Assembly: GCA_028289965.1 (NCBI GenBank)
Contig: JAQGKS010000067.1
Location: forward strand, 1 to 52,287
Reading direction: 5' to 3'
Length of the DNA: 52,287 nucleotides
Source of the DNA: Sphingomonas bacterium
Lineage (GTDB): Bacteria > Pseudomonadota > Alphaproteobacteria > Sphingomonadales > Sphingomonadaceae
This document shows positions 1 through 49,665 of this stretch, piece after piece (the stretch's first letter is position 1; each line of letters opens with the position of its first letter). The translations under genes were made by a program, and so were the position numbers. Below the pieces are notes generated by a model. It was not told the DNA's origin. It ran no database searches and saw only the letters and a program-made list of their open reading frames with translations.

Positions 1-2699
1 CCGAGCAGCATCAGCAGCCCGATCAGCACCGGCATCGAGATCGGATTGCCGGTGAGGAGGAGCGCCCGCGCGCCGCCGAGGGGCGCGAGCATCAGCGATC
101 CCATGTTCACGAACGGCGGCATCACCCGTTTGTAGAGCAGCACCAGCACCGCGAAGACGAGCAGGATGCCCGAGACGACGGCAATGACGAAGTTCACGAT
201 CATCTCGGCCTGCCACTTGCTGTCTCCGTAATTCACCTTGGCGACGCCGCGCGGCAGGTTCTTCAGGATCGGCAGCGCGAGGATCTTGGGCATGGCCTGG
301 CCGCTGACCGCGCCGGGGGCGAGATCGGCGCCGATCATCGCGCGGCGGGCCTGGTTGTAGCGGCGAAGCTCCGACGGGCCGGCACCGAAGCCGATGTCGG
401 CGACGACCTTGAGCGGCACCGAGCCGCCGCTGGCGGTGGGCACCGGCAGGTTCTGGATCGTCGCAAGGCTGCGGCGCGCATTCTCGTCGATCGCGACGCG
501 GATCGGGATCTGCCGGTCCGACAGCGAGAATTTGGCGACGTTCTGATCGATGTCGCCAAGCGTCGCGATGCGGATCGTCTGGCTCAGCGCGCTGGTCGTT
601 ACGCCGAGATCGGCGGCGAGGTCGAAGCGGGGGCGGATGGTGATTTCCGGGCGGCTGAGATCGCCGTCGATGCGCGGCGCGCGCAGTTCGGGAATGCCGC
701 GCATCTCCTCGACCAGCTGGAGCGCGGCGGTGCTCAGCGCCTCCGGATTGTCGCCGGCCAGCACGACCGTGATGTCGCGCCCGCCGCCGCCCGCCTGGCT
801 CTGGAAGGTCACGCGGGCATCGGGGATGTCGCGCAGGGCAGGTGCCATCGCCCGCTCGAACTCGGTGCTCGTGCGGTCGCGCTTCTTGTGGAGCTGGAGG
901 AAGATATTGGCGTTGCCGATCTCGATATCCTCGAACGCCGATTTCACGTCGGGCGCGTTGCGAGCCAGCTCGGCGACCCGATCGGCCACCGCCGTGGTCT
1001 GCGCCAGCGTCGATCCGGGGACCATCTCGATCCGAATCTGGCTCGAATCATTGTTGTTCGCCGGGCGGAAGGTGAAGGGCAGGGTGTAGAAAGCGAGCAC
1101 GGTCAGGGCGAACGACACCGCACCCAGGCCGACCGTCTTCCAGCGGTTGCGCAGCGACCAGCGCAGCACCGCCATATAAGCGCGCATCACGGCGTTCTCG
1201 CCGTGCGGCGCCTCGCCATGCGCCTTGAGGAAATAGGCTGCGATCATCGGCGTGACGAGCCGGGCGACCGCGAGGCTCATCAGCACCGCGGCGACGACGG
1301 TCAGGCCGAACTGCTTGAAGAACTGCCCCGAAATGCCGGGCATCAGGCCGACGGGCAGGAACACGGCGACGATCGCCATCGTCGTCGCGAGCACCGCCAG
1401 GCCGATCTCGTCGGCGGCGTCGATCGATGCCTGATAGGCGGATTTGCCCATCCGCATGTGGCGCACGATATTCTCGATCTCGACGATCGCATCGTCGACG
1501 AGCACGCCCGCCACCAGGCTGAGCGCGAGCAGGCTGATCCCGTTGAGGGTGAAGCCCATCAGGTCCATCACCCAGAAAGCGGGGATGGCGGACAGCGGGA
1601 TCGCCAGCGCCGAGATCACCGTCGCGCGCCAATCGCGCAGGAACAGGAAGACCACGAACACCGCCAGCACCGCGCCCTCGACCATCGCCTGGATCGCCGA
1701 GTGATATTGCGCCTTGGTATAATCGACGCTGGTATAGAGCTGGGTGAACTTGACCTTCGGATTGTCCTTTTCGAGCTTGGAGATCAGCCGGACAGCCTCG
1801 TCATAGACGGTGACGTCGGATGCGCCCTTGGCCTTTTCGAGGCTGAAGCTGAGCACCTGACGGTCGTTCATCTTCGAGATCGAACGCTGTTCGGCATAGA
1901 GGTCGCGGACCTCGGCGATATCGGACAGGCGGATCGTGCGGCCATTGCCGACCGAGATCTGCTTCTCGCCCAGCGCATAGGCGTTTTCGGCGTTGCCGAG
2001 CACGCGCACCGACTGTTCGGACCCGGCAATCTCGGCGCGGCCCCCTGCGGCATTGAGGTTGGTCTGGCGCAGCTGGGTGTTGACCTGCGCCGCGGTGATC
2101 CCCTGCATCTGCATCTTGAGGGGATCGAGGATGACGCGGATCTCGCGGCTGACGCCGCCGCCCCGGTTGACCGCGGCCATGCCGCTGATTGAGAGCAATT
2201 GCTTGGCGACCGTATTGTCGACGAACCAGCTCAGCTCCTCAAGCGTCATGTCGACCGCCTCGGCCGAGAAATAGGCGATCGGCCCGCCTTCAATGTCGAC
2301 GCGCACGATCTGCGGCTCGAGGATGCCGTCGGGCAGCTCGCTGCGGATCTGGGATACGGCATCGCGCACGTCGTTGACCGCCCGATCGACCGGGGTGCCG
2401 ATGGCGAACTGGACGGTGGTCCGCGAGCTGCCTTCGCTGACGAAGGAGGAAATCTCGTCGACGCCGCTGATACTGCGCACGGCGGCTTCGACCCGCTGCG
2501 TCACCTGGGTTTCAAGCTCGGTCGGCGCGGCGCCCGGCTGCGAGACGATCACCTGGGCGGCCGGGAAGCTGATGTCCGGATTGTTGTTCACGTCCATCCG
2601 CATGAAGCTGACCACGCCGGCCAGCGTCAGAGCGATGAACAGGACGATCGGGGGAACCGGGTTGCGGATCGCCCAGGCGGAGATGTTGCGGAAATCCAT
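1..2699 (-). CDS. RND multidrug efflux permease (AcrB/MexB-like), partial
   Basis: Inner-membrane proton-driven pump of the HAE1 RND family; about 899 codons are present and the C-terminus lies beyond the left edge. My reading of the minus strand starts MDFRNISAWAIRNPVPPIVL, a typical RND N-terminus with the first membrane helix, followed by the large periplasmic porter loop. The motif LVDDAIVEIEN near residue 400 matches the TM4 proton-relay Asp pair of AcrB (D407/D408). A second periplasmic loop follows, and the visible end lies in the C-terminal helices (YKRVMPPFVNMGSLMLAPLG). It starts 10 bases after the adaptor gene stop, so the two are surely one operon. No outer-membrane factor gene is seen here. 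The substrate cannot be read from sequence; a multidrug or solvent exporter is the default reading. Confidence 0.93.
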   Translation of the reverse strand, partial: MDFRNISAWAIRNPVPPIVLFIALTLAGVVSFMRMDVNNNPDISFPAAQVIVSQPGAAPTELETQVTQRVEAAVRSISGVDEISSFVSEGSSRTTVQFAIGTPVDRAVNDVRDAVSQIRSELPDGILEPQIVRVDIEGGPIAYFSAEAVDMTLEELSWFVDNTVAKQLLSISGMAAVNRGGGVSREIRVILDPLKMQMQGITAAQVNTQLRQTNLNAAGGRAEIAGSEQSVRVLGNAENAYALGEKQISVGNGRTIRLSDIAEVRDLYAEQRSISKMNDRQVLSFSLEKAKGASDVTVYDEAVRLISKLEKDNPKVKFTQLYTSVDYTKAQYHSAIQAMVEGAVLAVFVVFLFLRDWRATVISALAIPLSAIPAFWVMDLMGFTLNGISLLALSLVAGVLVDDAIVEIENIVRHMRMGKSAYQASIDAADEIGLAVLATTMAIVAVFLPVGLMPGISGQFFKQFGLTVVAAVLMSLAVARLVTPMIAAYFLKAHGEAPHGENAVMRAYMAVLRWSLRNRWKTVGLGAVSFALTVLAFYTLPFTFRPANNNDSSQIRIEMVPGSTLAQTTAVADRVAELARNAPDVKSAFEDIEIGNANIFLQLHKKRDRTSTEFERAMAPALRDIPDARVTFQSQAGGGGRDITVVLAGDNPEALSTAALQLVEEMRGIPELRAPRIDGDLSRPEITIRPRFDLAADLGVTTSALSQTIRIATLGDIDQNVAKFSLSDRQIPIRVAIDENARRSLATIQNLPVPTASGGSVPLKVVADIGFGAGPSELRRYNQARRAMIGADLAPGAVSGQAMPKILALPILKNLPRGVAKVNYGDSKWQAEMIVNFVIAVVSGILLVFAVLVLLYKRVMPPFVNMGSLMLAPLGGARALLLTGNPISMPVLIGLLMLL

Positions 2700-2709
2700 G
2701 GCGAGCGGC

Positions 2710-3891
2710 CTAGCGCCGGGCGGCCTGGCGTTCCGGGATCACCTGGTCGCCAGCGTTGAGGAAGGCACCCGCGGACAGCACGACCCGCTCGTCGCCGGCC
2801 AGCCCGGAGGTGATCGCGATTCCCGCATCGGACACCTCGCCGATCTTGACCGGGCGCCGCGCGACCTTGTTGTCGGGCCCGACGACATAGACGAAATTGC
2901 CCTGGGCGTCGCTCTGCACCGCGGATTCGGGGAGCAGCGGGGCATCGACCGTGCCGCTGACGATACTGGCGCTGGCGAAACCGCCGGGCCGCAGCGCCGG
3001 ATCATAAGCGAGCGCGATTCGCGCGGTGCCCTGGCGCATGTTCGGATCGATCACCGGCGACAGCTGCCACACCTTGCCCTGGAAGGCGGTGCGCATGCCG
3101 GTCGGCGTGACCGTCGCGGGCATGCCGATCTTGAGGCGGGCGAGATCCTGCTCGGCAAGCCGTGCAAGCATCTCCATCTCGCCGCCGCGGGCGATGCGGA
3201 ACAAGGCGGCGTTGGACGGGCCGACGATCTGGCCCGGTTCCAGCGCGCGGGTGAGGATCAGGCCGGCGGCCGGCGCGCGGATGCTGAGCCGGCCGATGCG
3301 CGCGCGCGCCTGGCCGAGTTGCGCCTCGGCGACGCGGACGCGGGCGATGGCGGCGTCGCGCGCGGCGACCTTGCGATCGATGTCGGCCTTGGAGATGAAG
3401 CCGCGGCTGACCAACGCCTGCGCGCGATCCAGTTCGGCGCGGGCCAGCGCGGCATCTGCCTGCGCCACCGCGATCGATGCGCCGAGCGCATTGCTTTCCT
3501 GCACCTGGACCGAGCGCTCGATCGTCGCGAGCGTCTCGCCGGCGGCGACCCAGTCGCCCGCCTCGACCAGGACCTGGGAGACCATGCCGCCTTCGCCGGC
3601 GATGCCGACCGGCATTTCGCGGCGGGCAGCGAGGCTGCCGGTGGCGTTGATGACCCCGGCGACCGCCTGGCGGCCGGGCACGATGACGGTGACGCGTGGC
3701 AGCACCGGCGCCTCGGCAACCGGCGCGCCCCCGCGACCCCGGAACAAGAAGATCGATGCGACGATCGCCACGGCAAGGACGGCGGCACCGATCCAGATCC
3801 AGCGGCGGCGCGACCGCAGCAGCTCACCGTCGGGCAGCCCTTCGGTGATCTCGGCATTGCGACGCGAAAAGCCTTGCTCGATGTTCATCAC
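2710..3891 (-). CDS. RND efflux periplasmic adaptor (membrane fusion protein)
   Basis: A 393-residue HlyD/AcrA-type adaptor that would link the permease to an outer-membrane channel. A cytoplasmic N-terminus of about 30 residues rich in Arg is followed by one membrane anchor (WIWIGAAVLAVAIVASIFLF), so it is anchored by a helix rather than by lipid. Then come the first half of a lipoyl domain (VLVEAGDWVAAGETLATIE), an Ala/Arg-rich coiled-coil hairpin, the second lipoyl half (IRAPAAGLILTRALEPGQIV) and beta-barrel and membrane-proximal domains. Two adjacent ATG codons (3891 and 3888) could serve as start. It is the first gene of the operon, transcribed away from the 3892-4368 gap, which must carry its promoter. 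Confidence 0.93.
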   Translation of the reverse strand: MMNIEQGFSRRNAEITEGLPDGELLRSRRRWIWIGAAVLAVAIVASIFLFRGRGGAPVAEAPVLPRVTVIVPGRQAVAGVINATGSLAARREMPVGIAGEGGMVSQVLVEAGDWVAAGETLATIERSVQVQESNALGASIAVAQADAALARAELDRAQALVSRGFISKADIDRKVAARDAAIARVRVAEAQLGQARARIGRLSIRAPAAGLILTRALEPGQIVGPSNAALFRIARGGEMEMLARLAEQDLARLKIGMPATVTPTGMRTAFQGKVWQLSPVIDPNMRQGTARIALAYDPALRPGGFASASIVSGTVDAPLLPESAVQSDAQGNFVYVVGPDNKVARRPVKIGEVSDAGIAITSGLAGDERVVLSAGAFLNAGDQVIPERQAARR

Positions 3892-8438: not shown

Positions 8439-9017
8439 TCACGGGTAGAGCAGGCCCTCGCTCCAGCCGTCGGCGGTCGGCACGAACAGCCGGCGCTCGT
8501 GCAGCCGGTGGGCGCGATCCCGCCAGAACTCGATCCGCTGCGGCGCGACGCGAAAGCCCGACCAATGCGGCGGGCGCGGCACCGGGCCGCCAGCAAAGCG
8601 CGCCTCCGTCGCGGCAAAGCGCGCCTCGAACGTCTCGCGCGAATCGAGCGGGCGGGACTGGTCCGATGCCCAGGCGCCGAGCTGCGAATCGCGACCGCGG
8701 GTGGCGAAATAGGCGTCTCCCTCGGCATCGCTGACGCGGCTGACCGCGCCCTCTATCCGGACCTGGCGGCGGAGCGACTTCCAGTGGAACAGCAGCGCGG
8801 CACGGGGATGGCCGATGAGATCGCCGGCCTTCCGGCTTTGCAGGTTGGTATAGAAAACGAACCCGCGCGCATCATGCCCCTTCAGCAGCACCATCCGGCA
8901 CGAAGGCTGGCCATCGTCGTCCACCGACGCAACCGTCATGGCGTTGGCATCGTTGGGCTCCGAGGCGCGCGCTTCGGTGAACCAGGCGTCGAACAGGGCG
9001 ATAGGATCGATGGTCAT
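8439..9017 (-). CDS. pdxH: Pyridoxamine 5'-phosphate oxidase
   Basis: A 192-residue FMN-dependent oxidase that makes pyridoxal 5'-phosphate from the pyridoxamine or pyridoxine phosphates. FMN- and substrate-binding stretches are visible: [49 protein letters not shown], then [13 protein letters not shown] and [16 protein letters not shown] with a C-terminal leucine-tyrosine-proline end, as in E. coli PdxH. The start is ATG 9017 ([13 protein letters not shown]); the frame stays open far upstream but that is an antisense artefact. It probably heads an operon with the PhzF-like gene and is divergent from the transglutaminase gene, with 81 bases between. Confidence 0.95.
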
Positions 9018-9098: not shown

Positions 9099-12000
9099 AT
9101 GATCCAGGCTGCGCTTCACCACGTCACGGCCTATCGCTACGATCGGCCCGTCCTCCTCGGGCCACAGCTGATCCGGCTGCGCCCCGCGCCGCACAGCCGC
9201 ACGGCCGTGCCGAACTATTCGCTGACGATCGAGCCGGCGAACCACTTCATCAACTGGCAGCAGGATCCGCTGGGCAACTGGCTGGCGCGGCTGACCTTCC
9301 CCGAGCGTACCGATCATCTGAGCATCACGGTCGACCTGATCGCCGATTTGACGGTGATCAACCCGTTCGACTTCTTCGTCGAGGAGTATGCCGGCCAATA
9401 TCCGTTCGCCTACGAACAGACGCTCGCATCCGATCTGACGCCCTATTTCGAAGGCGATCGATCGAGCCCGCTGCTCGACGCGCTGGTCGCCGAATTTGCC
9501 GGCCACCGCGGCGGCACGATCGACTTCCTGGTCGATATCAACAGCACGCTCAGCCAGCGCGTCGCCTATATCGTGCGGATGGAGCCGGGCACGCAGACGC
9601 CCGAGGAAACGCTGCGCATCGGCAGCGGATCGTGCCGCGATTCGAGCTGGCTGCTGGTCCACCTGCTGCGCCGGCTGGGGTTCGCGGCGCGCTTCGTCTC
9701 GGGCTATCTGATCCAGCTCAAGGCCGATATCGAGCCGGTGACCGGGCCCAAGGGCACCGACAAGGACTTCACCGATCTGCACGCCTGGGGCGAGGTCTAT
9801 ATCCCCGGCGCCGGCTGGATCGGCCTCGACCCGACGTCCGGGCTGTTTGCGGGCGAGGGCCACATCCCACTCGCCGCGACGCCGCATTATCAGTCGGCCG
9901 CGCCGATCAGCGGCGCGCTGCTCGAGCCGGCATCGACCGAGTTCCATTTCGAGATGGACGTCCAGCGCATCGCCGAGGCGGTGCGGATCACCCAGCCGTT
10001 CACCGATCAGCGGTGGGATTCGCTGCTGGCGCTGGGCGACCGGGTCGACGCCGATCTCGTCGCGCAGGACGTGCGGCTGACGACCGGCGGCGAGCCGACC
10101 TTCGTCTCCGCCGACGATCCCGAAGCGGGCGAGTGGAACGGCGACGCCGTCGGCCCGACCAAGGCGCTCTATGCCGATCGCCTGATCCGCAAGCTGCGCG
10201 GCAGCTTTGCGCCGGGCGGGCTGCTCCACCACGGCCAGGGCAAATGGTATCCGGGCGAAAGCCTGCCGCGTTGGGGCTATTCGATCTATTGGCGGCGCGA
10301 CGGGGTGCCGATCTGGCGCGATGCATCGCTGATCGCCGAGAGTGGCAGCGCGGGCGGCGCGTCGCTGCCGCCCGGTGCGGCCGAGGAGTTCCTGGCGGCG
10401 ATCGCCGACGGCCTCGGCGTCGAGCGCGCCAACGTCCAGCCGGCGTTCGAGGATGGCCTGCAATGGGCGGTCAAGGAAGCCGAACTGCCCGGCAATACCG
10501 ATCCGACCGACCCCAAGATCGACGATCCCGAAGAACGGGCGCGGATGGTGCGGGCGTTCGAGCGCGGCCTGTCGAGCCCGATCGGCTATGTCCTGCCGGT
10601 CCAGCGCTGGCAGGCGCGGGCGGACAAGGGCTGGCGATCGGAACAGTGGCGCGTGCGACGCGGCAAGCTGTTCGTGGTGCCGGGGGATAGCGCGCTCGGC
10701 TATCGCCTGCCGCTCGGTTCGCTGCCGCACGTGCCCAAGGCGGAATATCCCTACATCCACGTCCGCGATACGACCGAGCCACGCGAGCCGCTGGCCGATT
10801 ATCGCGAGCAGCGGATCGAGCATGTCGCCGAGGCGAATGGCGGCGCCGCAGCGCAGGAGCGCCAGGAACAGCATATCATCCAGGGCGCGGTGCGCACCGC
10901 GATCACGGTCGAGGCGCATGACGGGCACCTTGCGGTGTTCATCCCCCCGACGGAGGCGCTGGAGGATTATCTCGAGCTGATCGCCGAGGTCGAGGCGGCC
11001 GCCGAACGGCTCGGCACGCCGGTGCGGATCGAGGGCTATGCCCCTCCGCCCGATCCGCGCCTCCAGGTGCTCAAGGTCACGCCCGATCCCGGGGTGATCG
11101 AGGTCAACGTCCATCCGGCGTCGAGCTGGCGCGAGACGGTGGAGATCACCGAGACGGTCTACAAACTGGCGCGCGAGACCGGGCTGACCGCCGACAAGTT
11201 CATGGTCGACGGCCGCTCGATCGGCACCGGCGGCGGCAACCACCTCGTGCTCGGCGGACAGGCGGTGACCGATTCGCCGTTCATCCGCCGGCCCGATCTG
11301 CTCAAGAGCTTCGTGCTCTACTGGCAGCGCCATCCGTCGCTCAGCTACCTGTTTTCCGGCATGTTCATCGGCCCGACCAGCCAGGCGCCGCGGATCGACG
11401 AGGCCCGCCACGACGGGCTGTACGAACTGGAGATCGCCCTCGCGCAGGTGCCGCTGCCCGGCGAAGGCGAGACGCCCGAGCCGTGGCTGGTCGACCGGCT
11501 GTTCCGCAACCTGCTGGTCGACGTGACCGGCAACACCCACCGTACCGAAATCTGCATCGACAAGCTGTTCTCGCCCGACGGGCCGACCGGCCGGCTCGGG
11601 CTGGTCGAGTTTCGCGGGTTCGAGATGCCGCCGGAAGCGAAGATGAGCCTAGCGCAGCAATTGCTGATGCGCGCGCTGACCGCCTGGCTGTGGCGCGAGC
11701 CGCAGCGCGGTTCGCTGATCCGCTGGGGCACCGCGCTCCACGATCGTTTCCTGCTGCCCCATTTCGTCTGGGCGGACTTCCTCGGCGTGCTCGAGGATCT
11801 GCGCCAGGCGGGCTATGATTTCGATCCCGACTGGTTCGAGGCGCAGCGCCAATTCCGTTTCCCCACCCACGGCACGATCATGGCCGGCGGGGTCGAGCTG
11901 GAAATCACCCACGCGCTGGAGCCGTGGCATGTGCTCGGCGAGACCGGGGCGATCGGCGGCACGGTGCGCTATGTCGACAGCTCGACCGAGCGGTTGCAGG

Positions 12001-12407
12001 TGAAGGCCAAGGGGCTCGTCGCCGGGCGCCACGTCGTCGCCTGCAACGGCCGCGCGGTGCCGATGACGTCGACCGGCATCGCCGGGGAGGCGGTCGGCGG
12101 CGTGCGCTACAAGGCGTGGGCGCCGGCCAATTGCCTCCACCCGCGTCTGCCCGGCAATGCCCCGCTGACGTTCGACCTGTTCGATCGCTGGAACGATCGA
12201 TCGCTCGGCGGATGCGTGTATCATGTCGCGCATCCCGGCGGACGCAGCTACGAGAGCGTCCCGGTCAACGATTATGAAGCCGAGGCGCGCCGCAAGACGC
12301 GCTTCCAGGAACATGGCCACACGCCGGGCAAGGTGGTCGTGCCGTCCGAAGAGAGGACCGAAGAATTCCCGATGACGCTGGATCTGCGCACGCCCGCGCC
12401 CCGCTGA
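9099..12407 (+). CDS. Transglutaminase/DUF2126 putative amidoligase
   Basis: A large cytoplasmic two-part protein, 1102 residues from ATG 9099 ([20 protein letters not shown]); ATG 9081 is an alternative start. The N-terminal 300 residues are a bacterial transglutaminase-like unit: beta-rich Bact_transglu_N, then the papain-like core with C179 (in [10 protein letters not shown]), H228 (LHAWGEVY) and D244 (GLDPTSG), so the triad is intact. The remaining 800 residues are DUF2126, including [50 protein letters not shown] and [17 protein letters not shown]. This domain has been predicted to be an amidoligase forming peptide-like bonds with ATP. It is the first gene of a three-gene set and no substrate is known. 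Confidence 0.93.
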
Positions 12408-12415
12408 CCACCGCA

Positions 12416-14935
12416 GTGCTCGACCGGATGGTCGCCACGCCCGGCAATAGCGGACGGGTCGATGGCTGGATGAACGACTATGTCGCGGCGGCCGGCGCCG
12501 GCGATGTGATGCGCGGCGCGATCGCCCGTGGCGACCGCAGCTGGCGCGATATGCTGGGCGGGCTGGCGGCGATCAGCGACGGCCATCTCGGCCGGCTCAA
12601 CGATCGCATCCTGCGCCAGGCGTTCGAGGTCGGCACCGCCTTCCGCCTCCCCGGCGAGGTGCAGGAACGGCGCTGGCCGCTTTCCGCCGTGCCGCTGCTG
12701 ATCGGCGAGGCCGAGTGGGCGACGATCGAGGCCGGCGTCGTTCAGCGCGCCGATCTGCTGGAAAGCGTGCTGGCCGACATCTTCGGGCCGCAGACGCTGA
12801 TTGCCGACGGCGCGTTGCCGGCGGCGCTCGTCGCGGGCAGCCCGCATTTCCTGCGCTCGATGATCGGCTGGACGCCGCCCGGCCGCCACCGCCTGCACAT
12901 CTATGCCGTCGATCTGGGGCGCGGGCCGAATGGCGAGTGGCGGGTGCTGGCCGACCATGCCCGAGCGCCGGCCGGGGCCGGCTATGCGCTGGAGAACCGG
13001 CTCGCCGCATCGCGGGTAATGGGGGCGCTGCAGGCGCGGCTCAACGTCCGCCGGCTGGCGCCGTTCTTCTCCGCCTTTCGCGATGGCCTGTCGGCGGTGT
13101 GCCGCCGATCGGAGCCGCGAATCGGGCTGCTCACGCCCGGACGCTACAATCAGAGCTATGCCGAACAGGCGCATCTGGCGCGCTATCTCGGGCTGTTGCT
13201 GGTCGAAGGCGCGGACCTGGCGGTGCGCGAGGACCAGCTCTACGTCCGCACGATCGAGGGGCTGAAGCGGGTCGACGCCTTGTGGCGACGGATGGATTCG
13301 CGCTTCCTCGATCCGCTCGCCTTCGATGCGCGGTCGGCGATCGGGGTGCCGGGGCTGATGGATGCGATGACCGCCGGCAACGTGATCGTGGCCAATGCGC
13401 CGGGCGCCGGCGTGGTCGAGTCGCCGGGCATGGCCGCCTTCCTGCCGGCCTTGTCGCGGCGGCTGAGCGGCGAATCGCTGCGGCTGCCCAACATCGCCAC
13501 CTGGTGGTGCGGCCAGGCGCGGGAGCGCGCGCATGTCGAGGCGTCGTTCGATCGGCTGCTGATCGCGCCGGCATTCGGCGAGGTCTCCGCCGCGCTGCCC
13601 GCCGGATCGGTGTTCGGCGGTGGGCTGGCGGGCCGGGCGCGCGACGCGCTGCTCGCTGACATCCGCCGGCGTCCGCACGATTATGTCGGGCGCGAGGTGG
13701 TTCGCCTGTCGACCACGCCCGCCCTCCGCGGTGGCGCGTTGCTGCCCCGGCCGTTCACCCTGCGCGTGTTCGCGGCGCGCGATGCGAGCGGATCGTGGAC
13801 GGTGATGCCCGGCGGCTTTGCCCGGCTGGGCGAGGATCCGGACGTGCGCGCCGCGGTGATGGGCGAGGGCGCCTTTGCCGCCGAGGTCTGCGTGCTCGGC
13901 GAAAAGCCGGTCGCGGCGCTGTCGCTGCTCCCCGCCCACGTGCCGATCCGGCGCAACCCCGGCACGTTGCCCAGCCGGGCGGCGGACAATCTGTTCTGGC
14001 TCGGCCGCTATATCGAACGCGGCGACGCGACGCTGCGGCTGGTGCGCGCCGCATTGGGCGGCACGATCGACGCCGATGGTGCCGCGGCGCGGGGCCCCGC
14101 CACGATGGCGCGGATCGCGGAGATGCTGATCGAATCGGGCGCGGTCGATGACCCGGCGGAGGCGGCCACCGGCGCGGCCGGGGCCAGCGAAAGCGCCGCG
14201 CCCGACCTGCACATGCTGGCCCGCGCCGCGCTGGAGGGGGATAGCGGCGCGAGCGTCCGCAGCCTGCTCCACAGCATCCACACGATCGGCGAGGGCACGC
14301 GCGACCGGCTGTCGGCCGAGGTGTGGCGGCTGATCGATGCGCCGCCCTACAGCGAGACCGAGCCCAACGCCGCCGCATTGCTCAACCGCGCCACCGCGAT
14401 CCAGGAGCGGTTCTCGGCACTGGCCGGGCTGGCCGCGGAGAATATGGGCCGGACGGCGGCATGGCGTTTCCACGATCTCGGGCGGCGGGTCGAGCGTGCG
14501 GTGCAGGTGTGCCGGCAGATGCGCTGTTTTGCGGCGAACGAGGCGTTGGCGGACGATCTGACCACCCTGCTCGATCTCAACGACAGCCAGATCAGCTACC
14601 GCGCGCGCTATCTCACCGGCCTCGCGCTGGCGCCGGTGCGCGATCTGATCGCTCTCGATCCGTTCAACCCGCGTTCGCTTGCCTATCAGGTCGAAATGAT
14701 CCGCGAGCATCTTACCGCGCTGCCGGTGCTGCACGACGACGGCATGGCCGAGGATCATCAGCTGATCGCGATCGAACTGGGCGGGCTGGTGGCGATGGCG
14801 AAAGCCGAGCAGCTCGGCGCCGCTGCGGTGGCGCCGATCGAGAACCGGCTGTTCGCTCTGTCCGACGCGATCAGCCGGCGCTTCTTCCTCCAGGGCAATG
14901 AGACGATCCGTTCCGCGGGGATGACGCTGGCATGA
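12416..14935 (+). CDS. Circularly permuted ATP-grasp/alpha-E fusion protein
   Basis: 839 residues from GTG 12416, eight bases after the previous stop; ATG 12428 is also possible. Residues 1 to about 515 match the circularly permuted type 2 ATP-grasp family: LLTPGRYNQSYAEQAHLARY, GADLAVREDQLYVRTIEGLK, SRFLDPLAF, NAPGAGVVESPGMAAFLPAL and RPFTLRVFAARDASG. From about residue 518 (TLPSRAADNLFWLGRYIERG) to the end it is an all-helical alpha-E domain. These are often separate genes; here they are fused. The canonical nucleotide-binding Lys and Gly-rich loop is not visible where I expect it (residues 380-400 read RLLIAPAFGEVSAALPAGSV), so ATP use by this copy is in doubt. The cassette is a predicted peptide-forming system. 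Confidence 0.9.
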   Translation: MLDRMVATPGNSGRVDGWMNDYVAAAGAGDVMRGAIARGDRSWRDMLGGLAAISDGHLGRLNDRILRQAFEVGTAFRLPGEVQERRWPLSAVPLLIGEAEWATIEAGVVQRADLLESVLADIFGPQTLIADGALPAALVAGSPHFLRSMIGWTPPGRHRLHIYAVDLGRGPNGEWRVLADHARAPAGAGYALENRLAASRVMGALQARLNVRRLAPFFSAFRDGLSAVCRRSEPRIGLLTPGRYNQSYAEQAHLARYLGLLLVEGADLAVREDQLYVRTIEGLKRVDALWRRMDSRFLDPLAFDARSAIGVPGLMDAMTAGNVIVANAPGAGVVESPGMAAFLPALSRRLSGESLRLPNIATWWCGQARERAHVEASFDRLLIAPAFGEVSAALPAGSVFGGGLAGRARDALLADIRRRPHDYVGREVVRLSTTPALRGGALLPRPFTLRVFAARDASGSWTVMPGGFARLGEDPDVRAAVMGEGAFAAEVCVLGEKPVAALSLLPAHVPIRRNPGTLPSRAADNLFWLGRYIERGDATLRLVRAALGGTIDADGAAARGPATMARIAEMLIESGAVDDPAEAATGAAGASESAAPDLHMLARAALEGDSGASVRSLLHSIHTIGEGTRDRLSAEVWRLIDAPPYSETEPNAAALLNRATAIQERFSALAGLAAENMGRTAAWRFHDLGRRVERAVQVCRQMRCFAANEALADDLTTLLDLNDSQISYRARYLTGLALAPVRDLIALDPFNPRSLAYQVEMIREHLTALPVLHDDGMAEDHQLIAIELGGLVAMAKAEQLGAAAVAPIENRLFALSDAISRRFFLQGNETIRSAGMTLA

Positions 14936-15810
14936 TCTACGACATCACCCACCGCACCTTGTGCCACTATGCCAATGCGGTGCGCTTCGCCCGCTGCAAC
15001 CTGCGCATGGCGCCGATCGACTGGCCCGGCCAGCGGGTGCACGACCATTCGCTGAGCGTGAAGCCGCGCGCGACGATCGGCACGACGCGCAGCAGCGGCT
15101 ACCCGGTCAACGTCACGCGGGTGGTGATCGACGAGCCGGCGCGAGAGCTGGTGATCGAAAGCCGCTTCCGGGTGACCGTCGACCGGCCGGTCCCCGCGCC
15201 GCTGCCCGACGATCCGACCGTCTCCGAGGTCGTCGAAATGGCCCTCGCGTCGCGCGATCTGTCGCCCAGCGCCCCGGCCAATTACCTGTTCGGATCGCCG
15301 ATGGTGTCGCTCGATCCGGCGATCGCGGCGTGGTGCGCCGAGGAGCTGGCGCCCGATCGCGGCATCGTCGAAGCGGCGATCGCGCTCACCCGCCGGATCA
15401 CCGCCGAGTTCAAATATGACGGCAACGCGACCGCGCTGGACACCAGCCCGGCCGAAGCGTTCGAGAAGCGGCACGGCGTGTGCCAGGATTTCGCCCATGT
15501 CATGATCGCCGGCGCGCGGACGCTGGGCCTGCCGGCGGCCTATGTCAGCGGCTATCTGCGGACCTATCCGCCCGCCGGCAAGCCGCGGCTGGTCGGCGCC
15601 GATGCGACCCATGCCTGGCTGTTGCTGTGGTGCGGGCCGAAGCGCGGCTGGATCGGGTTCGATCCCACCAACGCCTGCTTCATGGCCGACGATCATATCG
15701 TCACCGCGATCGGCCGGGATTATTCGGACGTGTCCCCGGTCGACGGCATCTTCCTCGGCCGCAACAAGCAGAAGATCGACGTCTCCGTGGATGTCGCGCC
15801 GGTCGAGTGA
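14932..15810 (+). CDS. Transglutaminase-family protein
   Basis: A 292-residue protein starting at ATG 14932 inside the stop of the previous gene (ATGA overlap), so translation is coupled. It has a Bact_transglu_N domain (residues 1-150, MIYDITHRTLCHYANAVRFA) followed by a transglutaminase core with C184 (RHGVCQDFAH), H227 (ATHAWLLLWC) and D244 (GFDPTNAC), an intact triad. No signal peptide is seen, so it should act in the cytoplasm. Family members may cleave or transfer amide bonds rather than crosslink proteins. With the two upstream genes it completes the predicted peptide-modification cassette; it differs clearly from the first gene's transglutaminase unit. Confidence 0.92.
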   Translation: MIYDITHRTLCHYANAVRFARCNLRMAPIDWPGQRVHDHSLSVKPRATIGTTRSSGYPVNVTRVVIDEPARELVIESRFRVTVDRPVPAPLPDDPTVSEVVEMALASRDLSPSAPANYLFGSPMVSLDPAIAAWCAEELAPDRGIVEAAIALTRRITAEFKYDGNATALDTSPAEAFEKRHGVCQDFAHVMIAGARTLGLPAAYVSGYLRTYPPAGKPRLVGADATHAWLLLWCGPKRGWIGFDPTNACFMADDHIVTAIGRDYSDVSPVDGIFLGRNKQKIDVSVDVAPVE

Positions 15811-15879: not shown

Positions 15880-16635
15880 ATGCGTTCGGCGTCGTACCAG
15901 TCTGCGTCGGATCGCGATTCCCGATCGATCGGGAGCCGGGCGATTGCGCTGGTGCTGGCGATCGCCGTGCACGCGCTGTTGCTCCTGATGCTGCTCAGCC
16001 TCGCCCCCGAACTGCTGCCGCTCGGCCCCGAGACCAAGAGTTTCCGGCTGCTCAACTTCTCCGAACAGCCCGCGCCCGATCCGGCGCCGCGCTCCAGCCC
16101 GAGGCGGGCCGAGGCGGCGGCCACGCCCCGCGAGACGGCGGCGCCGGCCCCGCCGAAAATCCCGCCGCCACCGCTCCTGCCACCGGCGCCGTTGCAGATG
16201 CTCCACGTCTCGCGCGACGTGTTCGCGGCGGGAGACATTGGCGCGATGCCGCGCGGCGTCGCCAGCGCCCCGGCCGGCGATAGCGGGGCGGGGGAGGAGG
16301 ATGGCGGGGCCGAGGGCACCGGCGAAGGGCCGGGCGGCGAGCGGCTCTACAATGCCCAATGGTACGTCAAGCCGAAGCGGGCCGAGCTCGCCACCTATCT
16401 GCCGCAGGGCAGAGCGGGGCCGGGCTGGGCGCTGATCGCCTGCCGGACGATCGCGAACTATCAGGTCGAGGATTGCCAGGAACTAGGCGAATCGCCCTCC
16501 GGCTCCGGCCTCGCCCGCGCGCTGCGCCAGGCGGCGTGGCAGTTCCGCGTGCTGCCGCCCCGGATCGGCGGGCGCAAGATGGTCGGCGCGTGGGTGCGGA
16601 TCCGCTTCGACTTCACCGAGGCCCGCGACGAGTGA
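15880..16635 (+). CDS. TonB-like membrane-anchored protein
   Basis: A 251-residue protein with the architecture of an energy transducer: a cytoplasmic N-terminus of about 20 residues, one membrane helix ([20 protein letters not shown], with His as often found in TonB), a long Pro/Ala-rich periplasmic spacer (residues 60-105), a Gly-rich linker and a C-terminal domain of about 100 residues from [20 protein letters not shown]. The end ([20 protein letters not shown]) resembles the closing strand of TonB C-terminal domains. No ExbB, ExbD or receptor gene is near. It lies 69 bases after the second transglutaminase gene on the same strand and may be cotranscribed, but a functional link is only inferred from position. 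Confidence 0.7.
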
Positions 16636-16650: not shown

Positions 16651-17730
16651 TCAGGCCGCGGTGCGTCCCGCCGCTCCGGCGATCAGCCGGTTGATGAAGT
16701 CGAGCTTGCAGACGATCGCCGCGGAGAGGTGGAAGGGGTAGAGATCGGGTTGCCCCATGCTCCGGTTGATCGCGTTGAGCGCGAAGGAGAAGGGGATCCA
16801 TCGGTCGACGAGCTGCGCGGTCGGCGCGCGGTACGGATCGAAATCGACCGTCGGGCCGGGATGGCTCTCCGGCCCCGGAAAGGGCGCGAGCGACGCGCCG
16901 AAGCCGCCGATCGTCGCCAGCGTATCGATCATGTGGAGCAGGTGGGCGAAGGTTTCGGCAAAATCCTCCCACGGGTGCGAACAGGCGTAGAGGCTGACAT
17001 ATTCGTCCGACCAGGCGATCTGCCCGCCGAGCGACTGATAATGATTCTGGAGCGCGGCGGCATAGTTCTTGCGCTCATCGCCAAAGGCTTCGCGGAAGCC
17101 CTCGAGATCCGGGCCGTCCTTGACCAGCCTTTCCCAGAAATGATGGCCGACCTCGTGGCGGAAATGGCCGAGCAGGGTGCGGTATGGCTCGCCCATCTCG
17201 CGCCGTATCTGTTCGCGGCGGACATCGTCGGCCTCGATGATGTTGAGCGTGATCAGCCCGCCATTATGGCCGGTGAGGACCAGCGGCTGTCCGCTCGCCT
17301 CCGCCGAGGCATCGTAGAGGAAGTCGAAAGCGAGCGCGTCGGGCCGCTCGGCGCGGGTCTCGAGCGGCAGGCCGAGGCGGATCAGCGTGTGAAACATGCG
17401 CCGCTTGGCCGCCTCGATCTTGGCCCAGCGTTCGGGCACGTCCGATACCGACAGATCGGGGATCATCCGGTTGTGGCGGTAGGCGCGGCAGAGCGGCGTC
17501 GTATCACCCACCGCGACCAGCCAGTTGCACACCTGCAACGGCCCGTTGTTGGCGCACACCGTGACATCATGCGCCGCGCCGTCAATGTCGCGCCAGGTGG
17601 TGCAATTGTCGCCCAGGAAGAGAAAGCGATCGGCGTCCGGATGATAGCCGAGCGTGAAGTTGCACGCCGGGCAGACGCGCGCTTCGAAGTGGATCAGGCG
17701 GCGGCAATTGGGGCATGCGAACGGCGGCAA
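16651..17730 (-). CDS. Putative zinc-binding metallopeptidase (DUF2248-like)
   Basis: About 359 residues. The N-terminus is a zinc ribbon with two CxxC knuckles (FACPNCRRLIHFEARVCPAC), followed by a gluzincin-type motif GHFRHEVGHHFWERLV, where HExxH-like HEVGH supplies zinc ligands and the catalytic Glu; SHPWEDFAETFAHLLHM further on probably gives the third ligand. The enzyme is uncharacterised; peptidase activity is predicted from motifs. I chose TTG 17730, which sits 8 bases after AGGA and just before the zinc ribbon. An in-frame ATG at 17811 would add 27 residues without clear conservation. It converges on the TonB-like gene with 15 bases between and is close to the transglutaminase/ATP-grasp genes. 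Confidence 0.85.
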   Translation of the reverse strand: MPPFACPNCRRLIHFEARVCPACNFTLGYHPDADRFLFLGDNCTTWRDIDGAAHDVTVCANNGPLQVCNWLVAVGDTTPLCRAYRHNRMIPDLSVSDVPERWAKIEAAKRRMFHTLIRLGLPLETRAERPDALAFDFLYDASAEASGQPLVLTGHNGGLITLNIIEADDVRREQIRREMGEPYRTLLGHFRHEVGHHFWERLVKDGPDLEGFREAFGDERKNYAAALQNHYQSLGGQIAWSDEYVSLYACSHPWEDFAETFAHLLHMIDTLATIGGFGASLAPFPGPESHPGPTVDFDPYRAPTAQLVDRWIPFSFALNAINRSMGQPDLYPFHLSAAIVCKLDFINRLIAGAAGRTAA

Positions 17731-17871
17731 ATCTATCTTCCTTGTTTGGACCGGGTTCAACGCCGGTTCGCGCGATAGGTGCCCCTTGCAAGCGCGCGCC
17801 GCTGACCTCATCTCGCCCGTGGCAAATTTGCAACAGTTGGCTTAACCGGTCGCATAAGCGAAACAGGCACC

Positions 17872-49580: not shown

Positions 49581-49665
49581 GCGGGCGTGGCGGAACTGGT
49601 AGACGCGCTGGATTTAGGTTCCAGTATCGCAAGATGTGGGGGTTCGAGTCCCTTCGCCCGCACCA
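49581..49665 (+). tRNA. tRNA-Leu(TAG)
   Basis: A complete class II tRNA of 85 bases. The acceptor stem pairs GCGGGCG (49581-49587) with CGCCCGC (49655-49661), then discriminator A and encoded CCA (49663-49665). The anticodon arm is CTGGA, loop TTTAGGT, TCCAG, giving anticodon TAG for CTA leucine codons. A long variable arm and the GGTTCGAGTCC T-arm are present. It lies between the divergent epimerase gene and tig. Confidence 0.96.

What the first reader, a model, noticed from the sequence alone, without database searches (positions are those of the whole stretch)
9099..15810. Predicted peptide-ligation cassette without Anbu
Three consecutive genes encode a transglutaminase/DUF2126 putative amidoligase, a circularly permuted ATP-grasp/alpha-E fusion and a second transglutaminase, packed with an 8-base gap and an ATGA overlap. 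Established: ATP-grasp, alpha-E and transglutaminase genes are a predicted peptide-synthesis or protein-modification system, often found beside the proteasome-like Anbu gene. Seen here: no Anbu-like reading frame in the window. Inference: this is an Anbu-free version in which DUF2126 supplies a second ligase-like activity. Substrate and product are unknown to me.
Basis: partly seen in the sequence, partly recalled or inferred. Interest (0 to 1): 0.78.

Follow-up and report, generated by a model that had tools for sequence, protein, structure and literature searches.

The report
Paired amide-ligase and transglutaminase gene cassette
Three neighbouring genes make two predicted bond-forming enzymes and two predicted bond-cutting or bond-transferring enzymes; it is a widespread, uncharacterised bacterial gene set of unknown product, and here it seems to go together with a second, proteasome-related gene set elsewhere in the genome rather than replace it.

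Summary
In detail: TG-DUF2126 (9099-12407), CP-ATP-grasp/alpha-E (12416-14935), transglutaminase (14932-15810), with an 8-base gap and an ATGA overlap. Fold models support two ligases: DUF2126 resembles glutamine synthetases, the ATP-grasp resembles glutathione and glutathionylspermidine synthetases. Both transglutaminase triads are intact.

"Anbu-free" is only half right. The cassette rarely sits beside Anbu (0 of 80 named loci; 2 of 21 class-sample genomes). But the source genome, an 87%-complete assembly, also carries the stand-alone ATP-grasp and alpha-E of an Anbu-type operon, cut by a contig end inside its transglutaminase gene; the one same-genus genome sampled has that operon with Anbu. 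In the family, 28 of 32 DUF2126 genomes have Anbu, like the rest (96 of 117), and 31 of 31 tested keep a stand-alone-type alpha-E. I read the cassette as a second module beside the Anbu-type module, not a replacement.

A likely fourth member was missed: a zinc metallopeptidase (16651-17811, minus). In the family, 13 of 13 genomes with it have DUF2126; elsewhere the link is looser.

A known kind of system; substrate unknown; moderate interest.

The parts
9099..12407 (+). Transglutaminase (about residues 1-265) fused to DUF2126, a GS-fold amidoligase-like domain
   Evidence: Pfam; model pLDDT 78.4; residues 1-294 match 3isr Z 22.6, residues 293 onward match glutamine synthetases Z 10.9-12.1; TG residues C179/H228/D244 in 48 of 48 aligned rows, DUF2126 motifs nearly or fully invariant
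12416..14935 (+). Circularly permuted ATP-grasp (type 2) fused to Alpha-E
   Evidence: Pfam; solved relative 3n6x E 1.2e-107; model pLDDT 87.4, 3n6x Z 41.1, glutathione synthetases Z 22-25, glutathionylspermidine/trypanothione synthetase-amidases Z 20.4-21.5; lies in the fused clade of the ATP-grasp tree
14932..15810 (+). Second transglutaminase, own polypeptide
   Evidence: Pfam; C184 and H227 in 94 of 94 rows, D244 in 93 of 94; ATGA overlap with the preceding gene
16651..17811 (-). Zn-ribbon + Peptidase_Mx putative zinc metallopeptidase, convergent; likely fourth member
   Evidence: Pfam (PF15887 314.6 bits, PF10005 76.9 bits); HExxH H219 21/21, E220 20/21, H223 21/21; 13 of 13 family genomes with it have DUF2126; near TG-DUF2126 in 10 of 80 named loci
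15880..16635 (+). Unassigned protein (251 aa) between the cassette and the peptidase; probably not part of the system
   Evidence: No Pfam match; not in any family shared by 7 or more of 109 loci

Best explanation
The window holds the DUF2126 branch ('module B') of the ATP-grasp/alpha-E/transglutaminase system. It carries two ATP-dependent amide-bond-forming domains (a GS-fold domain and a glutathionylspermidine-synthetase-like ATP-grasp with alpha-E fused on) and two papain-fold transglutaminase-type domains that would hydrolyse or transfer the same kind of bond. The metallopeptidase next door would trim peptide product or substrate. I infer a make-and-break cycle on a small peptide, a gamma-glutamyl-type amide or a protein tag, as glutathionylspermidine synthetase/amidase does on one chain. 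Module B works alongside, not instead of, the related stand-alone module A (ATP-grasp, alpha-E, transglutaminase, usually Anbu), which the source genome also carries. Shown: gene order, predicted folds, conserved catalytic residues, co-occurrence. Inferred: catalysis, the cycle, a shared substrate, any tie to nitrogen limitation.
For: Folds: DUF2126 to glutamine synthetases; ATP-grasp to 3n6x, glutathione synthetases and glutathionylspermidine/trypanothione synthetase-amidases. Catalytic residues conserved. Order kept in 70 of 80 named loci. Modules A and B are separate ATP-grasp groups (22 stand-alone rows on one side of a 100/100 branch). Co-inheritance: all 21 DUF2126 genomes of the class sample have alpha-E, against 27 of the other 121; 31 of 31 DUF2126 family genomes tested have two alpha-E copies, one fused-type and one stand-alone-type by score. 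Among family genomes without an Anbu hit, stand-alone-type alpha-E is in 4 of 4 with DUF2126 and 2 of 15 without (p 0.004, or 0.012 without the source). Physical linkage: two Caballeronia plasmids hold both modules and Mx in one block; G042 and G035 have stand-alone ATP-grasp/alpha-E beside module B; G091 and G025 have TG-DUF2126 close to Anbu and only a stand-alone-type alpha-E. Mx: 13 of 13 in the family, 34 of 46 in the phylum sample. Papers (passages): the Y. bercovieri Anbu-operon ATP-grasp releases phosphate from ATP (PMC6376114); P. putida PP_2685 (proteasome-like) and PP_2688 (CP ATP-grasp) have log2 changes of 4.44 and 3.99 on nitrate versus ammonium (PMC8050072); in marine metagenomes these domain families associate with urea-metabolism domains (PMC3597751).
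Against: I found no activity reported for any DUF2126 protein (searches listed under Tried and rejected). The nitrogen data concern module A genes of other bacteria. No sigma-54-type site lies in the short region upstream of 9099. The Y. bercovieri operon proteins formed no stable complex and its Anbu cut none of the tested peptides (PMC6376114, passages). DUF2126 model confidence is moderate (pLDDT 78.4, pTM 0.71) and stretches at or near conserved motifs (704-710, 754-770, 808-816, 825-831) are below 50. The 31 of 31 is only partly informative, since Anbu, and so presumably module A, is in 96 of 117 family genomes without DUF2126. Four class-sample genomes have the fused ATP-grasp/alpha-E and TG without DUF2126 (L051-L054); 7 of 80 named loci show TG-DUF2126 without an ATP-grasp in the held stretch, at least one because the contig ends. 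Mx also occurs without DUF2126 (12 of 46 in the phylum sample; 8 of the 10 plasmid loci I opened). Genomes are related, so all Fisher values are only indicative.
Confidence: 0.6

Rival explanations
1. One reading: an Anbu-free alternative, in which DUF2126 makes up for an absent Anbu system.
For: No Anbu hit in the source genome; 0 of 80 named loci have Anbu in the held flank; three near-complete family genomes (G168, G169, G250) have DUF2126 and no Anbu hit.
Against: Source contig C133 ends inside an Anbu-type operon whose counterpart in the same genus has Anbu. In the family 28 of 32 DUF2126 genomes have Anbu, against 96 of 117 others (Fisher p 0.60); in the class sample 13 of 21 against 21 of 121, a positive association (p 6e-5). 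The three Anbu-less genomes keep module A's ATP-grasp and alpha-E. Two genomes have DUF2126 close to Anbu.
Confidence: 0.1
2. The cassette makes a secondary metabolite or storage peptide and has nothing to do with proteins or tags; the transglutaminases are biosynthetic condensing enzymes rather than editors.
For: Both ligase folds are those of small-molecule enzymes (glutathione synthetase, GS, GmaS). Module A genes rise together with nitrate and urea uptake genes in P. putida (PMC8050072, table passage).
Against: No precursor peptide or tailoring enzyme stood out: apart from the three genes and Mx, the families shared by 7 or more of 109 loci look lineage-specific or mixed to my eye (an ABC-type ATPase group in 25 loci is mixed). 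Frames under 80 aa were not examined.
Confidence: 0.25
3. The Mx metallopeptidase is only a chance neighbour carried by synteny.
For: In 8 of 10 opened plasmid loci it stands without DUF2126, three of them with heat-shock, cold-shock or other stress genes nearby; 12 of 46 phylum-sample genomes have Mx without DUF2126; in 4 of the 13 family genomes it lies far from DUF2126.
Against: It is close to TG-DUF2126 also in Methylobacterium, Methylopila, Aurantimonas, Boseongicola, Nitratireductor and Caballeronia, on either side of it, though in four of the ten named loci no ATP-grasp was found in the held stretch; 13 of 13 family genomes with Mx have DUF2126.
Confidence: 0.3

Closest known systems
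Anbu operon (ATP-grasp, alpha-E, transglutaminase, Anbu; predicted peptide-synthesis system of Iyer et al. 2009, which I could not read; described in PMC5666114 and PMC6376114, passages)
   Same: Same three families; ATP-grasp of the same superfamily but a separate group; the stand-alone form is present in the same genomes.
   Different: Here ATP-grasp and alpha-E are one protein, a TG-DUF2126 protein is added, and Anbu is not adjacent.
Mycobacterium leprae ML2678 (PMC11597610, passage)
   Same: PF08379 transglutaminase region plus PF09899 on one protein.
   Different: Neighbours not examined; that paper reports a frameshift in it in one isolate. A similar M. tuberculosis cluster (Rv2566-Rv2569c) is recalled, not tested.
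E. coli glutathionylspermidine synthetase/amidase and trypanothione synthetase-amidase
   Same: Related ATP-grasp ligase fold (Z 20.4-21.5) on one chain with an amidase (its papain-type fold is recalled).
   Different: One polypeptide with known substrate; here transglutaminase-type domains and a second, GS-fold ligase.
Glutamine synthetase and gamma-glutamylmethylamide synthetase (GmaS)
   Same: DUF2126 fold (Z 10.9-12.1).
   Different: 7-13% identity over the aligned part, an alignment spread over more than 600 residues of the model, an N-terminal transglutaminase.
Rim and Rlo loci of Pseudomonas (PMC12239564, abstract and passages)
   Same: ATP-grasp protein encoded with a protease; mutations in the ATP-grasp gene rescue the protease mutants.
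   Different: Aspartic proteases, RimK-type ATP-grasp and, in Rlo, an inactive transglutaminase.

Membership tests
DUF2126 branch of the ATP-grasp/alpha-E/TG system | TG fused to DUF2126, then ATP-grasp/alpha-E, then TG, in order on one strand | tested here: met
DUF2126 branch of the ATP-grasp/alpha-E/TG system | Groups with other fused ATP-grasps, apart from stand-alone ones | tested here: met
   three rows that my script labelled stand-alone by best query (L054, L059, L060) fall among the fused ones and have fused frames of 787-827 aa
Anbu operon | Anbu gene adjacent | tested here: not met
   No Anbu hit in the source genome, window included
Anbu operon | Separate ATP-grasp and alpha-E genes | tested here: not met
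   One 839-aa protein here; a separate pair is on contig C133
Glutamine-synthetase-fold amidoligase | GS fold | tested here: met
   on a predicted model of moderate confidence; Foldseek alone is weak
Glutamine-synthetase-fold amidoligase | ATP-dependent carboxylate-amine ligation | not testable with these tools
   Needs an enzyme assay
Transglutaminase-type cysteine enzymes | Cys-His-Asp triad in both copies | tested here: met
   which residues form the triad is recalled from the family
Glutathionylspermidine-synthetase-like ATP-grasp | Fold and homology to 3n6x and glutathione synthetases | tested here: met
   substrate not tested
Zinc metallopeptidase (Peptidase_Mx) | HExxH zinc motif | tested here: met

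The most novel reading that the evidence does not exclude
Modules A and B plus Mx are one two-stage amide-ligation and editing cycle: B depends on A's ATP-grasp/alpha-E, and the cell can use either of two unrelated peptidases (Anbu or the Mx zincin) at the cutting step. This would be a bacterial protein- or peptide-conjugation cycle distinct from pupylation and from RimK-type glutamylation.
Probability: 0.2. Interest if true: 0.78.

Novelty: new member of a known kind. Interest (0 to 1): 0.42.

Why it matters
The system is widespread (at least 592 relatives of the TG-DUF2126 protein in one scan) and the same domain pair is annotated in the much-reduced M. leprae genome (PMC11597610, passage), yet I found no substrate in print. 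Evidence that the DUF2126 module goes with the stand-alone ATP-grasp/alpha-E module, rather than replacing Anbu, says which genes to remove together to see a phenotype. The 13-of-13 metallopeptidase link in one family gives a concrete extra gene to test.

Tried and rejected
Rejected: that the proteasome-family hit in the genome is Anbu; it is HslV, next to HslU. PF00227 as an Anbu detector: it misses many, so I built A1 from ten Anbu proteins and used it instead. The first extraction of Anbu frames took wrong-strand frames for several loci, so some 'Anbu' rows there are false; redone. Foldseek rows to diphtheria toxin (TM about 0.06, probability about 0.1) are noise. Alpha-E has no convincing match: its rows (Z under 10) are within what helical bundles give by chance. 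Sigma-54-like sites: 3 of 25 module A upstream regions (letter shuffles: mean 0.68, largest 4) and 12 of 103 module B regions (mean 2.8, largest 6), none in the window's upstream region; too weak to use. The first neighbour clustering was spoiled by antisense frames in high-GC DNA and was redone with a codon-position filter, which recovered TG-DUF2126 in only 95 of 109 loci, so its counts are lower bounds. NCBIfam gave no family at E 0.001 for the four proteins tried. A PDB sequence search with Mx gave nothing of use. Rows dropped before counts: two sub-threshold Mx hits in the class sample; three mis-assigned rows among the 73 junctions; translated rows with stops; G233 was left out, and 6 of the 21 family genomes with neither Anbu nor DUF2126 were not tested there.

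Papers: Iyer et al. 2009 is not held, so I cannot say whether it already places DUF2126 or Mx in this system. Searches: DUF2126 alone (0 papers); alpha-E with ATP-grasp and transglutaminase; Anbu with proteasome; Rv2566/Rv2567/Rv2569c; circularly permuted ATP-grasp or alpha-E domain; nitrogen starvation; COG4196/PF09899/COG2307/COG4307/putative amidoligase (8 papers; only PMC11597610 opened); zinc-binding metallopeptidase with ATP-grasp or transglutaminase (16 papers, 10 listed). I opened passages, never a whole text, of PMC5666114, PMC6376114, PMC8050072, PMC3597751, PMC8407117, PMC11597610, PMC12096838, PMC12239564 and PMC3056875; the other papers were seen only as listings. None of what I saw tests a DUF2126 protein.
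Full report
What is there. The three genes are as described. 9099-12407 encodes a transglutaminase (Bact_transglu_N and Transglut_core) fused to DUF2126; 12416-14935 a circularly permuted ATP-grasp fused to Alpha-E; 14932-15810 a second transglutaminase. The gap of 8 bases and the ATGA overlap are exact. Upstream, 8439-8828 on the minus strand is part of a pyridoxamine-phosphate-oxidase-type gene.

Folds and catalytic residues. I modelled TG-DUF2126 with 48 of the 81 sequences in hand from the window and the 80 named loci (A3): mean pLDDT 78.4, pTM 0.71. Residues 1-294 match a transglutaminase-like protein (3isr, Z 22.6). The rest matches glutamine synthetases: all 49 further rows listed are glutamine synthetases or homologues such as GmaS, Z 10.9-12.1, 224-284 residues aligned at 3.6-5.4 A. 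These Z values stand above the 7-8 that the tool gives as typical for models without a clear match, but identity is 7-13%, parts of the model are weak, and Foldseek's own E-values for GS are only about 0.02 to 0.2. The ATP-grasp/alpha-E protein (A4, 45 sequences) gave pLDDT 87.4. Its ATP-grasp part matches 3n6x (Z 41.1), glutathione synthetases (Z 22-25) and glutathionylspermidine or trypanothione synthetase-amidases (Z 20.4-21.5). Cys, His and Asp of the first transglutaminase are invariant in 48 of 48 rows, and the DUF2126 motifs [35 protein letters not shown] and EICIDK are nearly or fully invariant; those of the second transglutaminase are present in 94, 94 and 93 of 94 rows. So the transglutaminase and DUF2126 domains look intact; that they are active is an inference.

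How common it is. TG is next to DUF2126 in 80 of 80, an ATP-grasp follows in 73, and TG-DUF2126, ATP-grasp, alpha-E and TG are all found in 70; some contigs end early. Anbu is in 0 of 80 held flanks. By tblastn start, a -4 overlap before the last gene recurs in 30 of 70 loci (my count, after dropping three mis-assigned rows).

Is it Anbu-free? The source genome is a 3.0-Mb, 301-contig assembly, 87.18% complete. Its only proteasome-family hit is HslV beside HslU, and an Anbu profile from ten proteins of relatives (A1) finds none. But it has a second alpha-E on contig C133, next to a stand-alone ATP-grasp. Bases 16-3782 of that contig align at 80% identity to a contig of G175, the one same-genus genome in the family sample, in the order ATP-grasp, alpha-E, transglutaminase, Anbu. 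C133 stops about 100 codons into the transglutaminase; in G175 Anbu begins 33 bases after the transglutaminase (L064 coordinates). The most economical reading is that the organism has Anbu and the assembly lost it. I cannot prove this without a better assembly.

Co-occurrence. In a class sample of 142 genomes DUF2126 is in 21, alpha-E in 48 and Anbu in 34. All 21 DUF2126 genomes have alpha-E; 13 of 21 have Anbu, against 21 of 121 others (Fisher p 6e-5); all 34 Anbu genomes have alpha-E. By score and frame I class 19 of the 21 as having a stand-alone-type alpha-E; the two exceptions (G099, G127) are 84% and 74% complete. In a family sample of 149, DUF2126 is in 32 and Anbu in 124: 28 of 32 against 96 of 117, no association (p 0.60). 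Of the four DUF2126 genomes without an Anbu hit one is the source; G168, G169 and G250 are 99-100% complete. I tested alpha-E in 46 genomes, among them 31 of those 32: 31 of 31 have two copies, one fused-type and one stand-alone-type by score, while of 15 genomes with neither Anbu nor DUF2126 only two have any. Since most of the family has Anbu anyway, the telling part is the Anbu-less set: 4 of 4 against 2 of 15. G168, G169 and G250 keep the stand-alone ATP-grasp and alpha-E. So Anbu looks optional while module A's ligase part goes with module B. A tree of 77 ATP-grasp domains separates stand-alone from fused forms (22 rows, 100/100; the window with G175 among the fused).

Mixed arrangements. 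In two Caballeronia plasmids both modules and Mx sit in one block. In G042 and G035 the stand-alone pair adjoins module B. Two class-sample genomes have TG-DUF2126 close to Anbu: G091, divergent from a stand-alone ATP-grasp/alpha-E/Anbu operon, and G025, where Anbu, a transglutaminase and TG-DUF2126 follow within about 2 kb. In both only one alpha-E was found, of the stand-alone type. Four class-sample genomes have the fused ATP-grasp/alpha-E and TG without DUF2126 (L051-L054), and in G198 the fused copy lies 2.4 Mb from DUF2126.

The fourth gene. In the family sample Peptidase_Mx is in 13 of 149 genomes and all 13 have DUF2126 (Fisher 2e-10 with genomes treated as independent). In eight of the 13 it lies within 7 kb of DUF2126, in one about 13 kb away, in four farther or on another contig. 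In a phylum sample of 299 it is in 46, of which 34 have DUF2126, against 50 of the 253 others; in 10 genomes the two lie within 12 kb. In the class sample 9 genomes are over the cut-off, 6 of them with DUF2126. It is near TG-DUF2126 in 10 of 80 named loci, in four of which no ATP-grasp was found in the held stretch. Against this, 8 of the 10 Mx plasmid loci that I opened (of 50 records) have no DUF2126 near, and three of these sit near heat-shock, cold-shock or other stress genes. I conclude that Mx is a frequent but not obligate partner.

Mechanism. Most likely two ligases make, and two transglutaminase-type enzymes hydrolyse or transfer, an amide bond, with Mx (and Anbu where present) cutting peptides. 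An ATP-grasp of this type joined to an amidase is seen in glutathionylspermidine synthetase/amidase (fold match; the amidase fold is recalled). An ATP-grasp protein set against a protease is also seen in Rlo (PMC12239564, abstract and passages). Direct evidence on relatives is thin: phosphate release by the Y. bercovieri ATP-grasp (PMC6376114, passages), induction of P. putida PP_2685 and PP_2688 on nitrate (PMC8050072, table passage) and a metagenomic association with urea-metabolism domains (PMC3597751, passage), none of it for DUF2126.

Verdict. A good observation of a known, uncharacterised kind of system. The Anbu-free inference is probably wrong for the genome; the second-ligase inference is supported by predicted fold. 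The added value is the two-module picture and the metallopeptidase.

Noticed in passing
L024 (source contig C133) 1-2781: Stand-alone ATP-grasp, alpha-E and the first 100 or so codons of a transglutaminase, ending at the contig edge: a truncated Anbu-type operon.
   Followed up: yes
L191 2907-13679 and L188 2818-13574 (Caballeronia plasmids): TG, fused ATP-grasp/alpha-E, TG-DUF2126, Mx, stand-alone alpha-E and ATP-grasp in one block; no Anbu hit in the stretch.
   Followed up: partly
L062 6632-13882 (G091) and L198 9726-14280 (G025): TG-DUF2126 close to Anbu; in both genomes only one alpha-E, of the stand-alone type, was found.
   Followed up: partly
L051, L052, L053, L054: Fused ATP-grasp/alpha-E plus transglutaminase in genomes without a DUF2126 hit.
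   Followed up: no
L187 6399-9212, L193, L196 (plasmids): Peptidase_Mx copies without the cassette, near Hsp20, cold-shock, general-stress or nitrite-reductase genes; the L187 plasmid is typed as conjugative.
   Followed up: partly
L028 and L030 upstream of the stand-alone ATP-grasp: Sigma-54-type sites without mismatch (TGGCAC-N5-TTGCT), 146 and 87 bases upstream by the script's count; the only two without mismatch in the set.
   Followed up: partly
window 15880-16635: 251-aa frame with a hydrophobic N-terminal stretch and a proline-rich region, no Pfam match; looks TonB-like by eye only.
   Followed up: no
window 49581-49665: A tRNA-Leu gene.
   Followed up: no
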